This document shows, piece after piece, positions 192-57,096 of a DNA stretch of 64,000 nucleotides. This DNA comes from Ophioderma brevispina (Eukaryota; Echinodermata; Ophiuroidea; Amphilepidida; Ophiodermatidae), in NCBI GenBank assembly GCA_023653785.1, contig JAMKCH010002880.1:18592-82591 (forward strand), written 5' to 3'. Every line of letters starts with the position of its first letter. The stretch's first letter is position 1. The notes beneath the pieces were generated by a model. That model searched no databases. It worked only from the letters and a program-made list of their open reading frames with translations, and was not told where the DNA came from. Both the position numbers and the translations under genes were made by a program.

Positions 192-687
192 TCAGCAGCC
201 AGAACAGAAAACAGCAAAGAATAATAATACTGTCAATGTTATACCAAATATGGCCCACCCGCTAAGTTGACCGCCCTCACAGTTCTCTATACAGCAAGTG
301 TTGTTAAAATTACACTTGCCGATTGTTTGTTTTATATGCGAAGAAAAATCCTCCAAATCACAAAAGGTATTTTTGCAAAAGGGTAAATCAACTGGCAACT
401 CATTCAAGAAAACTTGCAGCTTAAAGCCTCTCTGTCCTTTTTGGGAACAGAATTCCTCTGTTTGATCCTTACAAACTTCAGAATGCCCTTCTTCATATGG
501 GCATTTGAACAACACAAAGGCAACGTTGGCTGAAAATGGTGCCATCCAGCTTGTGCGGAATTTACGTAGCTGATTTTCTTGGTAATCTGTAGCCAAAAGA
601 GGGCGCTTGTCTTTATAAAGGCTGAGCAGACATTGTAGAGGGACAACGGTTTCTGCATGTGCAAACTTGAAGACTCCTTTAGGAATG
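192..687 (-). CDS. MINPP1: MINPP1-like phosphatase, last exon (HAE motif, C-terminal membrane tail)
   Basis: This is the terminal coding exon of a multiple inositol polyphosphate phosphatase, a histidine acid phosphatase that removes phosphates from InsP6/InsP5 and related substrates in the secretory pathway. On the minus strand a good acceptor (pyrimidine tract ending in tgcag at 688) opens an exon that begins with one base completing a codon, then reads IPKGVFKFAHAETVVPL. The HAE triplet (His codon 657-659, Glu 651-653) is the proton-donor motif of this family. Further on, KDKRPLLATDY, FRTSWMAPFSANVAFVLF and LQVFLNELPV follow the family order. The frame is open for about 164 residues to the stop at 192. 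The last ~20 residues are strongly hydrophobic and end in a cysteine-rich tail, suggesting a membrane anchor or GPI signal instead of the SDEL-type retention tail of mammalian MINPP1. The phase at the acceptor matches the donor of the exon at 1506-1672. Confidence 0.88.
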
Positions 688-1505
688 CTGCAATGACAAC
701 ACAGAAAGAATCTCATAAGACCACACACCATGTGTAGAGCTGTTGCATCAACTTGTGCACGTGGTTTCAAACCACTTTTTGATGGGGGGGGGGGAGGGGC
801 CATGACCTTTTTCAAAGCATTTGGGGGCCTGGAAAAAAAAAAGAATGAGAGAAGACCCTACATTAAAGTTCATGAGAGAAATAAATGCCCCCCCAAAAAG
901 GGTCTGGATTCCTGCCACTAACACCCCTTGGCATTTCAAATAAGTCTTGATCTCTTTCCAACTAGTGCCGAACCAAATCTTCTTTGATGGATGATGATGG
1001 ACTGGGATGAACGGACGGACGGACGACGGACGGACGGACGGACGGAGTAGGGAGGGAGGGATGGATGGATGGCATGTCAGGGAGGTATAGACGGACGGAC
1101 GGATCAAACCGCACTGAGGATGGGATTGATCATCACTCATCAGTTTAAGAGATTAGGTTCCTGCAATCTATTAATTGATAACTGATCTCAACGGCAGTTT
1201 TCCTCAGCTTATAATAGTTTTCACCTCCTTTGGTCCTTTGTCATCCTCAATTTTGACAACTCTAAGATTTTACCCATCCCTTCATCTATAATCCCTTGAA
1301 ATCCTGCCATAGCTTACCAAGGCGGGCGTGGTGCCACCCCATATAGCTTTGACCGTAACAATCATGCTCAATCAGCCTTTTTTTGCCTGCACACAGGGAA
1401 ATTCCCACCTCACAGGGTAAAATCTCCCCACACCATGATTCCCCCCTCTGGGGCCCCTGTTCGACGACGACGGACCCCCTGCCTTACTGCTGTAGTTGCA
1501 CTCAC
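688..1505. other. MINPP1 last intron with ACGG microsatellite
   Basis: This is the intron between the two 3' MINPP1 exons. It holds an (ACGG)n/(ATGG)n microsatellite at about 1,010-1,110 and homopolymer tracts near 785 and 830. No gene is seen. Confidence 0.6.
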
Positions 1506-1672
1506 TTTTCTTGTTCATTGGTCAGTTGCTCCAAGTACTTGATTATATCTTTGTGCCAGATTGCACCAACCAAGGTAGTTGACTTGGGTCTCCATATCCT
1601 CTCTTCAGTAATTTTTTAAGTCTTGTTTGTATTCAAATACACTAATATCCTCAGGAGTTAAAGAGACACCAG
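1506..1672 (-). CDS. MINPP1: MINPP1-like phosphatase, middle exon, frame disrupted by small indels
   Basis: On the minus strand this stretch carries family blocks in the right order but spread over all three frames: a WC pair, TPEDISVFEYKQDLKNY, then KRGYG, then WHKDIIKYLEQLTNEQE. These correspond to the segment between the N-terminal domain and the HAE region of MINPP1 proteins. It ends at a consensus donor (GTGAGT, starting at 1505) with two bases left over, which the single leading base of the exon at 192-687 completes exactly. The probable acceptor AG is at 1673-1674; its pyrimidine tract is poor. Single-base differences near 1659, 1606, 1584 and 1558 break the frame. Because the last exon is intact, local consensus errors are as likely as genuine decay. 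The splice-phase agreement and motif order are seen in the sequence; the error explanation is inference. Confidence 0.72.
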
Positions 1673-2464
1673 CTTGACAGTGGTTGAATAGGCCATTGAT
1701 AACCACATAATTTAACTATCAATAGCTTCAATCTGTAAAAAACAAAATCAAAATTATTGTTATTATTTTACATCTGTAAGGCCCAAGGGTTTTGAGACCA
1801 CTTGTTTTTTTTTTGTTTTTTTTTTGCCTTTGTTTGCCCTAACAGAATGGAACCACTATAAATACAACAAGTTTTCTTTATGGAACATGAATTCTCAATG
1901 TGTTGTCCCAAAATGATGCGGATATAGCCCCGGAAGCTAGCAGCCATATGTAACACATCTCGAGTGCCAAAAGGTTTGAGCTGGATGAATATGTACACAG
2001 CAAGATTCCTACTTTACAGTGTAACCCAGACTTAGGCTACTCCATGTGTACTCTAGCTCTACTCCAAGGGTACCCCTGTGAGACCAATTATTGATGAACA
2101 GTACTACAACTATTACTTGCGAAGTACACAACCACTGGGTGGAATAGCACTATGTTTACTTAGCGGACCCATTCTTATATTGTACTCGCAGTTTGCCTGC
2201 TCGGTGACTAGCAGGTACCCTGTAGCCATCAGTAGTGGATTACCCCTGCAGCTACTCCCGAGAGTACCTTCACAGGTAACTTCCCTACCGGCTGCCTGGT
2301 AGGCATCCTTTGGACAACAAAGGCGCCAAACATTCCATTGTTTGTTTACTCCTTCTGATCCTTTTCAAAGCTTGGTAAAATCTATATTGGAGTTTGAGCC
2401 ATCACCAAAACCCCCTATATATGACTTTGGTGTAAAAACATAACAGTATGCGACCAAATGTTAA

Positions 2465-55117: not shown

Positions 55118-55413
55118 CAGAGGGTGTTTTGAGTCAATCCCACAATGCACCAGTTTTGGGAAATTTCACCTCAATGGGGTCATGTGATCACATAAAAATC
55201 CTATTCTTAACACATAAAAAAACCATGACTTTAATGCTCATTTTAGCCCACAAAACGTTAGTACTTAGGTAATTTTTTTTGCATGATTATGAAATGTCTT
55301 GTGGTTCTTAATCTTTTGGAACACTTTTTATCCCTAAGTACTGACATGTGTTTAGTACAGTATGGTATAGGCACATTGCTATGCATCATGGGATTGATTC
55401 AAAACACCCTCTG
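55118..55413 (+). mobile_element. MITE (CAGAGGGTGTTTT ends, 296 bp, 9-bp target duplication) inserted in the LINE
   Basis: Terminal inverted repeats of about 30 bp (CAGAGGGTGTTTTGAGTCAA and the inverse of CAGAGGGTGTTTTGAATCAA) are bordered by gtcccaagc (55,109-55,117) and gtcctaagc (55,414-55,422), a 9-bp duplication with one mismatch. The 9-bp size points to Mutator-like elements, while CAG..CTG ends recall hAT (usually 8 bp). A second copy lies reversed at 45,613-45,908. Confidence 0.86.
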
Positions 55414-55660
55414 GTCCTAAGCTGTGTAACAAGCTTCCCATTAACATCAGAGAGGTAACCTCCACCAGTGTCTAAACAACTCCTGAAAACACTTATTTCC
55501 TGATATTTAAATTTTGTTAATTTGGATTTATATGTATTATGCTGGATTTTGATGTCTATTACTAACTTATGTTTGTATCTTAAGTATTTGCTGTAAGGGG
55601 CTATGTTTGATGTTGAGCGCCATATAAATGCAATTAATTTATTATAATTATTCACAAAAC
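55414..55660 (+). pseudogene. LINE reverse-transcriptase C-terminus and 3' UTR, last piece
   Basis: This resumes as GPKLCNKLPINIREVTSTSV, then a stop and LLKTLIS-like decay, and ends in a short 3' UTR with 'gagcgccatataaatgcaatt', a form typical of CR1/L2-like LINE 3' ends. Confidence 0.78.
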
Positions 55661-56981
55661 ATCAATAGCAGGTGATACAAGTATTCCTGGGAACAATGTA
55701 TTTTTAGAATTTTCTTTCTCTATTTTAGCAATGGCATCCTAACAGCTGTCCAAAAAACTAATTTTCAATTTTGTGCCTTTTCAAACATTCGTAATGTTGT
55801 CGGATGTTTAGGTCAGGCCCCTATAGCACTTTAGGAAAAATGATGAAATTTAAGTTGAGTTCCAAATTAGGGCCTACAGAAGGGTATTACTTATAGTTAG
55901 AGCAAATGTGCACTATTTTCATATTTTTCTAATTTAGAAACAAACGTTTTTGGAATAGGGAGTAAATGGATTCATGTTATAAAATTCACCTATTGACATC
56001 AAAAACACTTCATTCACCAGTGATGTTTGTGATCAAACAAAATGGAACTGAAAGTTGCTTTGAGATATTTTCAGAACTGTTTGCCAATTTTCTTTGATTT
56101 CTTTGTGTGTCCAAACACAGCTAAAATGGCTTTTAACTTGCAAGCCAATTGCCCTAAATGTGGTGGAATTTTCATCAAAATGTATTAAAAGAAAACCTTT
56201 TGATTCTTTAATGGACATAATTTATTTTGCATGATCACAACTCGTATGCCTTCCTATATAAACATGTCCATATACTTTTCAAGGTAAAATGTGCATCATA
56301 AAATCAGTCAGTTTTACAAGTTGTGCCTCATATTATGCAATAGAACATAATCAACCATATGTGTACATGACTACATACAGCTTGCGGTACTCATTACACT
56401 ACTCTTTTGTTTTCATATAGACATGAAACTTGATACCAGTACTTTATATATCAGCTGTTACAAGATTGAAAATTGTTATGCTATTCTAATTTACCAATAA
56501 CAATGTAGCCCATTAAGGTTTTTAATGAGAATTTGATTTGAAAAACAAAATAGCAAGGCAATTTCAAATTTTATAAAATTGATGTTTTATTCATAAATTT
56601 TATTTCAAATTTAATGTGATGTTGGAAAAAACTTTTCATCAGAAACAATGTACCAAATTTTTTGTGCTATAATTTTGATTGCTTTTACTCAAAATATTGT
56701 CCATTATACTCGGAGACAGAAATGAAAGAATATTGCGCCAAAGATGTGAAACTGGTTCATATTGTATTTCGTTAGTACTATTGAGATGCACCCAACAAAC
56801 AGTCACATTATGTGCCAATTTCATGAACGTGTGACACAGAACGCAAATACTTCCAAAATTCTGTCGCCAATGATAAATTCTCACTTATATATGGTACTAA
56901 TTACAATTTTGTTGACATTTTTCCTTCCCGTCATCCCACCCATTCCATTCCTGTTTCAATCCCACCCATCTCATCCCATAG
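55661..56981. other. Sequence upstream of the PAPSS exon; presumed intron
   Basis: AT-rich with a pyrimidine-rich run (56,920-56,979) that forms the acceptor of the PAPSS exon. No upstream exon is recognised. Confidence 0.5.
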
Positions 56982-57096
56982 AGCAAGCAAGTGGCAACCA
57001 ATGTGTATGAGCAGGTCCATCATGTGTCTCGTGCCAAGCGTGGTCAGGTTATGGGCACAAGGGGAGGCTTCAGAGGATGCACTGTATGGTTTACAG
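56982..57096 (+). CDS. PAPSS: PAPS synthase exon just before the APS-kinase P-loop
   Basis: A short exon reads KQVATNVYEQVHHVSRAKRG, then QVMGTRGGFRGCTVWFT, which is the highly conserved segment immediately preceding the ATP-binding P-loop of bifunctional 3'-phosphoadenosine-5'-phosphosulfate synthases (compare the HHVSRxKRGQVVGTRGGFRG stretch of animal PAPSS1/2). These enzymes make the universal sulfate donor PAPS from sulfate and ATP, using an N-terminal APS kinase and a C-terminal ATP sulfurylase. A pyrimidine-rich tract ending in ccatag (AG at 980-981) gives the acceptor, and the exon ends at G|GTAGGT (57,096/57,097), leaving phase 1 to continue with the Gly of the next exon. I did not find the upstream first exon or the GxxGxGKT exon within the window; about 6.9 kb remain downstream, so introns must be long. 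The paralogue (1 or 2) cannot be decided. Confidence 0.87.

What the first reader, a model, noticed from the sequence alone, without database searches (positions are those of the whole stretch)
192..57096. MINPP1 and PAPSS genes are neighbours here, as in vertebrates
Seen: a MINPP1-family gene on the minus strand (5' end near 14.33 kb) and a PAPS synthase exon on the plus strand at 56,982-57,096, with no other recognisable gene in between. Known: human MINPP1 and PAPSS2 are adjacent on chromosome 10q23. Inference: the pair is an ancestral linkage kept since before the vertebrate lineage split, with one gene inverted (head to head here, as I recall same-direction in human). One enzyme clears inositol phosphates and the other makes the sulfate donor; a shared regulatory landscape in the ~42-kb interval could explain retention.
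Basis: partly seen in the sequence, partly recalled or inferred. Interest (0 to 1): 0.78.

Follow-up and report, generated by a model that had tools for sequence, protein, structure and literature searches.

The report
Back-to-back MINPP1 and PAPSS genes
In what looks like a brittle-star genome, the genes for an inositol-phosphate-clearing enzyme and for the enzyme that makes the sulfate donor PAPS start back to back about 480 bases apart and may share one promoter, but whether they have been neighbours since before vertebrates remains unproven.

Summary
Both genes are real, but their distance was misread. The PAPSS exon at 56,982-57,096 is not the start of PAPSS: its first exon (MTSSPEHKKPKLDE, then a GT donor) is at 14,817-14,858. 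The start codons (MINPP1 14,334 minus, PAPSS 14,817 plus) are thus 482 bases apart and the '42-kb interval' is PAPSS intron. The PAPSS exon is no stray fragment: the gene continues in phase on another contig. MINPP1 is single-copy as far as two genome searches see. A shared bidirectional promoter is likely from the spacing; motif and CpG signs are weak, and expression was not testable. Window 6,934-13,896 is an uncorrected long-read patch repeating both flanks; it makes a false second MINPP1 exon but also re-reads the junction. Ancestral linkage with human 10q23 is undecided: in the one other species comparable, Patiria, the proteins map to contigs of different length, and this MINPP1 has a membrane anchor instead of the ER signal. 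A new example of a known kind, of moderate interest.

The parts
192..687 (-). MINPP1 last exon (KFAHAET catalytic motif; C-terminal hydrophobic anchor; stop codon at 192-194)
   Evidence: ORF 192-857; tblastn 56% to Amphiura P0001; acceptor TTGCAG just upstream of the exon
1511..1729 (-). MINPP1 middle exon (Amphiura residues about 295-365), frame broken by several small indels in this assembly
   Evidence: frameshift-tolerant alignment score 178 against 44 and 39 in two controls; tblastn E 2e-7
6934..13896 (.). uncorrected long-read patch (assembly artefact; edges inferred from where the copies end); 7,325-9,749 repeats 4,939-6,933 and 12,170-13,814 repeats 13,897-15,197
   Evidence: one-sided, insertion-dominated differences, placement, homopolymer runs of 5 or more 24.1 per kb in 7 bins against 9.4 in 57 other bins, ranges touching: lowest 16, highest 19
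11677..12088 (-). rest of the large MINPP1 first exon, present only as raw, frame-broken read; 11,677-11,886 supported, 11,953-12,088 weak; GTATG donor at its end
   Evidence: P0038: score 66 against 44 and 36 in controls for 11,677-11,886; P0001 52 against 34 and 33; but P0032 50 against 49, and the 11,953-12,088 part 41 against 36; donor context
13897..14334 (-). MINPP1 first exon, good-quality part, ATG at 14,334 (hydrophobic signal-like start, RHGTRYP motif)
   Evidence: Pfam PF00328 above cut-off; 48-52% to P0001, P0032, P0037, P0038
14335..14816 (.). 482-base start-codon-to-start-codon interval, putative bidirectional promoter; CCGGAAG at 14,408 and CTTCCGG at 14,445
   Evidence: sequence; CpG o/e 1.17-1.24 in 14,301-14,600 against 0.48 window-wide, a level reached by 32 of 639 200-base stretches; 2 of the window's 7 ETS cores
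14817..14858 (+). PAPSS exon 1: MTSSPEHKKPKLDE (KKxK motif), donor GTAAAT
   Evidence: 11 of 12 residues to P0045; score 62 against a maximum of 36 in 60 simulated windows; same motif in sea cucumber and Asterias PAPSS
42554..42649 (+). PAPSS optional second or alternative first exon, MDPAVEGRHENAQRGGVTPDPYGIRGVNNNNN, donor GTAATA; may extend upstream
   Evidence: TPDPYGIRG match to P0045 and PDPYGIR in Patiria P0046
56982..57096 (+). PAPSS exon opening the APS-kinase domain, phase-1 donor
   Evidence: fits in phase the acceptor of the next exon on contig C1736

Best explanation
This is a divergent (head-to-head) gene pair in an echinoderm, most likely a brittle star. A single-copy MINPP1 (minus strand) and the organism's PAPSS (plus strand) start 482 bases apart. 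The likely mechanism is one short bidirectional promoter firing both genes, perhaps through its pair of ETS/GABP-type sites. The MINPP1 product enters the secretory path and stays membrane-anchored, dephosphorylating inositol phosphates. The upstream PAPSS start yields the KKxK (nuclear-targeting) N-terminus, and a second exon about 28 kb downstream may provide another start. Shown: gene identities, order, orientation, distance, continuation of PAPSS, copy number by search. Inferred: promoter sharing, co-expression, localisation.
For: Exon-1 match far above simulated chance, with ATG and in-phase GT donor. The same N-terminal exon is seen in Asterias (P0050, P0051) and sea cucumber (P0054) PAPSS. 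PAPSS exons follow in order on C1736 with a matching phase-1 acceptor. The junction is read twice: polished contig and raw-read copy, with 439 of 482 intergenic bases and 39 of 42 exon-1 bases matched, and no third copy found in the genome. Single-copy MINPP1 by two protein queries. Two ETS cores 37 bases apart and facing opposite ways; bidirectional promoters are described as starts within 1 kb and as enriched for inverted ETS motifs (PMC3964217, abstract and passages).
Against: No transcript start or expression data. The CpG level is not special (32 of 639 stretches reach it) and the gap is only 34.6% GC, so this is no CpG island. ETS motifs were chosen after looking; a second pair 277 bases apart lies at 21,551/21,828 in an inverted repeat, and the cited paper stresses pairs 100-200 bases apart. 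PAPSS could be driven mainly from the 42.5-kb exon. The raw-read copy may be one of the reads behind the polished contig. The MINPP1 middle exon is frame-broken even outside the patch.
Confidence: 0.68

Rival explanations
1. Ancestral linkage: MINPP1 and PAPSS were neighbours in the last common ancestor of echinoderms and vertebrates; an inversion explains the present head-to-head order and the sea-star separation is a later loss. (This and the next rival concern origin and are compatible with the best explanation.)
For: Human and mouse keep MINPP1/Minpp1 and PAPSS2/Papss2 in one block near PTEN (passages of PMC6033966). The window gene is the only MINPP1-type gene found in its genome, so it is the natural orthologue. 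Exact adjacency by chance is rare (inference).
Against: Patiria miniata PAPSS and MINPP1-like lie on contigs of different length. A sea star and a sea cucumber are reported to differ by one interchromosomal change, while the brittle star A. [quoted passage not shown] Orientation and distance differ from human (human arrangement recalled). None of 8 ORFs scanned on the flanks of the two contigs matched a Pfam family above its cut-off, so no PTEN- or ATAD1-like neighbour was seen; the contigs are only 83 and 50 kb.
Confidence: 0.35
2. Independent juxtaposition: the pair arose in the brittle-star line by rearrangement and is unrelated to the vertebrate neighbourhood.
For: Separate contigs in Patiria; brittle-star karyotype heavily rearranged (passages of PMC11310086); different arrangement from human (recalled).
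Confidence: 0.5
3. Assembly artefact: the junction itself is chimeric.
For: The contig contains a bad patch that ends inside MINPP1 exon 1, about 0.4 kb from its start codon, and an indel-rich second version of the PAPSS 3' part exists on contig C63528.
Against: The junction lies inside the polished part and is also spanned by the noisy read copy in the same order; no alternative neighbour for either exon was found in the genome.
Confidence: 0.05
4. MINPP1 here is a dying pseudogene, so the pairing has no function.
For: Frameshifts in the middle exon at 1,511-1,729 and in the patch.
Against: The good-quality part of exon 1 and the last exon are open and conserved with catalytic motifs. Breaks in the patch have the signature of raw reads, and the left contig shows more unmatched bases against the raw copy (90 in 1,667) than the right one (24 in 1,301), so it too seems poorly corrected.
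Confidence: 0.08

Closest known systems
Human MINPP1-PAPSS2 neighbourhood, 10q23 (and mouse equivalent near Pten)
   Same: The same two gene families lie in one block (PMC6033966 passages; immediate adjacency recalled).
   Different: In human the genes run in the same direction about 100 kb apart (recalled); here they are head to head with 482 bases between start codons. Human MINPP1 ends in the ER-retention signal SDEL (PMC8890658 passages); here it ends in a hydrophobic anchor.
Bidirectional (divergent) promoters of animal genomes
   Same: Divergent starts probably within 1 kb and an inverted ETS-motif pair (definition and enrichment from PMC3964217 passages).
   Different: Transcription starts and co-expression not measured; low GC, no CpG island; motif pair 37 bases apart rather than the 100-200 stressed in that paper.
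Amphiura filiformis MINPP1-like (P0001) and Patiria/Acanthaster/Diadema MINPP1-like
   Same: Same clade, support 100/99; C-terminal hydrophobic segment, judged by eye, in the rows complete at that end.
   Different: Gene neighbourhood unknown in Amphiura (its PAPSS was not among the 120 rows listed); contigs of different length in Patiria.

Membership tests
MINPP1 (His_Phos_2) | RHGxRxP and HAE catalytic motifs | tested here: met
   RHGTRYP in exon 1, AHAE in last exon; PF00328 above cut-off for both
MINPP1 (His_Phos_2) | C-terminal KDEL-like ER-retention signal (SDEL in human) | tested here: not met
   C-terminus is a hydrophobic segment ending FAVFCSGC (best 19-aa mean hydropathy 2.3), though a nearby sequencing error could have moved the stop. 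By eye P0001, P0028, P0029, P0031, P0033, P0034 are anchored too, while human (recalled), Mytilus, P0003 and P0027 end SDEL, HDEL, EEL, NEL
MINPP1 (His_Phos_2) | one-to-one orthologue of vertebrate MINPP1 | tested here: inconclusive
   Only MINPP1-type gene found in its genome with two queries, but in the tree its clade (10 rows, 100/99) is apart from the human row, which is a recalled sequence on a long branch
Bifunctional PAPS synthase (PAPSS) | APS-kinase and ATP-sulfurylase parts in one gene | tested here: met
   C1736 holds six exons in order over residues 107-661 of P0045, with gaps and one stop in the last; the window exon ends where they begin and fits in phase. The link between the two contigs is inferred
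Bifunctional PAPS synthase (PAPSS) | N-terminal KKxK motif on a separate exon before the conserved border | tested here: met
   HKKPK in exon 1; border and motif described in PMC3252339 (abstract and passages)
Bidirectional promoter pair | divergent transcription starts within 1 kb | tested here: inconclusive
   Start codons 482 bases apart; transcription starts not mapped
Bidirectional promoter pair | co-expression of the two genes | not testable with these tools
   No expression data available
Linkage conserved with vertebrates | same linkage in other deuterostome lineages | tested here: inconclusive

The most novel reading that the evidence does not exclude
MINPP1 and PAPSS are an ancient deuterostome neighbour pair which in brittle stars is drawn together into a single shared promoter unit, so that inositol-phosphate clearance at the membrane and production of the sulfate donor are switched on together (for example during skeleton or glycosaminoglycan production). 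Vertebrates would keep a loosened version of the same linkage.
Probability: 0.2. Interest if true: 0.6.

Novelty: new member of a known kind. Interest (0 to 1): 0.4.

Why it matters
If the pair is ancestral, it would mark one more small gene block kept since before vertebrates and would predict that the two enzymes are co-regulated. If independent, it is a case of two lineages bringing the same genes together. Either way the two enzymes in this animal may share one promoter, which can be tested directly. The locus also warns that gene distances and 'extra exons' in this assembly can be produced by uncorrected read patches.

Tried and rejected
A 42-kb shared regulatory interval was rejected: it is PAPSS intron. 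A tandem second MINPP1 first exon at 12.17-13.81 kb was rejected: it is a noisy copy of 13,897-15,197 with 368 extra against 24 missing bases and 68 mismatches. Five other repeat pairs of the window, measured as controls, have indels split between both sides (at most 1.9 to 1), but three of the five also have more gap bases than mismatches, so it is the one-sidedness that tells. The PAPSS exon as a processed fragment was rejected. Other His_Phos_2 genes of the genome (L001-L004) gave no tblastn hit at E 1e-3 to nine MINPP1-family queries; by eye they look PXYLP1-, PPIP5K- and acid-phosphatase-like (recalled labels). Rfam and tRNA scans of the window found nothing.

Literature: no paper with MINPP1, PAPSS2 and synteny together and none with PAPSS, bidirectional promoter and head-to-head together. 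A microsynteny search gave five listings, none opened. I make no claim that the pair is not in print beyond these searches.

Flanks: 18.6 kb left of the window had no PAPSS or MINPP1 match at E 0.1. Eight flanking ORFs on L005, L006, L021 and L022 gave no Pfam family above its cut-off; one had a sub-threshold zinc-knuckle match, E 0.016. The CpG peak that I first took as a promoter sign turned out to be ordinary on recount.
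Full report
What is in the window. The window is bases 18,592-82,591 of an 82,591-base contig (C2879) in a 2.51-Gb, 65,844-contig assembly. The MINPP1-like protein's best relative among 26 hits is from the brittle star Amphiura filiformis. In trees it sits with two Amphiura rows and with three (support 99/98) or two (support 100/99) unnamed rows, inside a wider clade with sea stars and sea urchins (99/98 and 100/99). The animal is therefore most likely a brittle star; the species was not identified.

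MINPP1. Exon 1 (ATG at 14,334, minus) has the RHGTRYP motif and the last exon has KFAHAET. The middle of the protein was sought by frameshift-tolerant alignment. A stretch at 1,511-1,729 scores 178 against 44 and 39 in two controls. A stretch at 11,677-11,886 scores 66 against 44 and 36 with P0038, and 52 against 34 and 33 with P0001, but only 50 against 49 with P0032; its prolongation to 12,088 (41 against 36) is weak. All are on the minus strand with broken frames. Whole-genome searches with Amphiura MINPP1 (3 of 3 matches, 6 candidates scored) and with a relative ending in a KDEL-like signal (1 of 1 match, 4 candidates scored) hit only this contig, so the gene is single-copy as far as these searches see.

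PAPSS. The exon at 56,982-57,096 has canonical splice sites and E 1.5e-14 to PAPSS1. With the protein P0045 as query, two more exons appeared. One is MTSSPEHKKPKLDE at 14,817-14,858, starting with ATG and ending at a GTAAAT donor. The other contains TPDPYGIRG near 42.6 kb. The exon-1 match scores 62 of a possible 65; the best of 60 simulated windows reached 36, the next best in the real plus strand 20 and the best in the minus strand 23. Among the 120 PAPSS relatives listed (of 750 found), 7 matched a loose version of the exon-1 pattern and 7 the DPYGIR pattern. The clear exon-1 matches are P0045, two Asterias rows and the sea cucumber P0054; the other three (two Anneissia rows and Glandiceps) are loose. 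The Asterias rows have the first exon without the second and the Patiria row the second without the first, so they may be alternative starts. The KKxK motif in exon 1 is the conserved nuclear-targeting motif of PAPS synthases, which sits before a conserved exon border (PMC3252339, abstract and passages). The gene continues on contig C1736: six exons in order from residue 107 of P0045, one with a stop inside, and the phase-1 donor in the window fits the acceptor on C1736. The three remaining matches of that search lie on C63528.

The junction. Start codon to start codon is 482 bases (14,335-14,816), 34.6% GC. CpG observed/expected is 1.17-1.24 in 14,301-14,600 against 0.48 in the whole window, but 32 of 639 stretches of 200 bases reach 1.17, so this is not special. 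Two of the window's 7 CCGGAAG/CTTCCGG sites lie in the gap, 37 bases apart and facing opposite ways; about 0.05 would be expected if they were spread evenly. I chose the motif after looking, and another pair lies 277 bases apart at 21,551 and 21,828, inside an inverted repeat. Bidirectional promoters are described as starts within 1 kb, enriched for inverted ETS motifs, with pairs 100-200 bases apart stressed (PMC3964217, abstract and passages). A shared promoter is thus likely mainly because the two starts are so close; it is not shown.

The bad patch. Bases 12,170-13,814 copy 13,897-15,197 with 368 extra bases, 24 missing and 68 mismatches; 7,769-9,749 copy 5,267-6,933 with 404 extra, 90 missing and 87 mismatches. 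Five control repeat pairs show indels on both sides, at most 1.9 to 1. A wider alignment gives 7,325-9,749 over 4,939-6,933. Homopolymer runs of five or more average 24.1 per kb in the seven bins of the patch (lowest 16) against 9.4 in the other 57 (highest 19). The reading is an uncorrected read that bridges two contigs without removal of the overlaps; edges at 6,934 and 13,896 are inferred. Only about 9,750-12,169 is new sequence, about 2 kb after allowing for the 1.22- to 1.26-fold inflation seen in the overlaps, so the window is about 5 kb too long here. The copy also spans MINPP1 exon 1, the 482 bases and PAPSS exon 1 in the same order, and the genome holds no third copy that the search could see (2 of 2 matches). 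An indel-rich second version of the PAPSS 3' part lies on C63528; whether its indels are one-sided was not measured.

Is the linkage ancestral? For: human and mouse have both genes in the PTEN neighbourhood (PMC6033966, passages). Against: Patiria miniata PAPSS (P0046) and MINPP1-like (P0029) are on contigs of 10,051,573 and 23,093,800 bases. This is one species, the only one named in both lists (14 MINPP1 rows; 120 listed of 750 PAPSS rows), and it assumes both lengths come from one assembly. A sea star and a sea cucumber are reported to differ by one interchromosomal change, and the brittle star A. [quoted passage not shown] The echinoderm MINPP1s form their own clade with C-terminal anchors, by eye, where complete, against SDEL in human (PMC8890658, passages); with a recalled human sequence on a long branch, orthology is open. 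I leave ancestry at about one in three.

Noticed in passing
window 23885-25683: A 109-base satellite (16.8 copies) inside PAPSS intron holds 44 AGGTCA sites, 12 of them TCAAGGTCA, all on the plus strand: an array of nuclear-receptor-like half-sites (motif meaning recalled).
   Followed up: partly
window 33381-33668 and 46819-47238: A two-copy 147-base repeat also containing AGGTCA, and a 21-base minisatellite.
   Followed up: no
MINPP1-like proteins P0001, P0028, P0029, P0031, P0033, P0034 and window 192-687: These end in a hydrophobic segment instead of a KDEL-like ER signal (by eye; hydropathy computed for the window only), suggesting a cell-surface or secretory-membrane MINPP1 in echinoderms.
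   Followed up: partly
genome contig C63528 (L012, L013, L016): An indel-rich second version of PAPSS 3' exons and introns, 75-85% identical to C1736 in the main alignments with more gap than mismatch columns; possibly an uncorrected duplicate contig.
   Followed up: partly
window 59819-63368 and C1736 52-7295 (L023): Colinear similarity (73-82%) between the end of the window's contig and the start of the contig carrying the rest of PAPSS: overlap of haplotypes or shared repeats.
   Followed up: no
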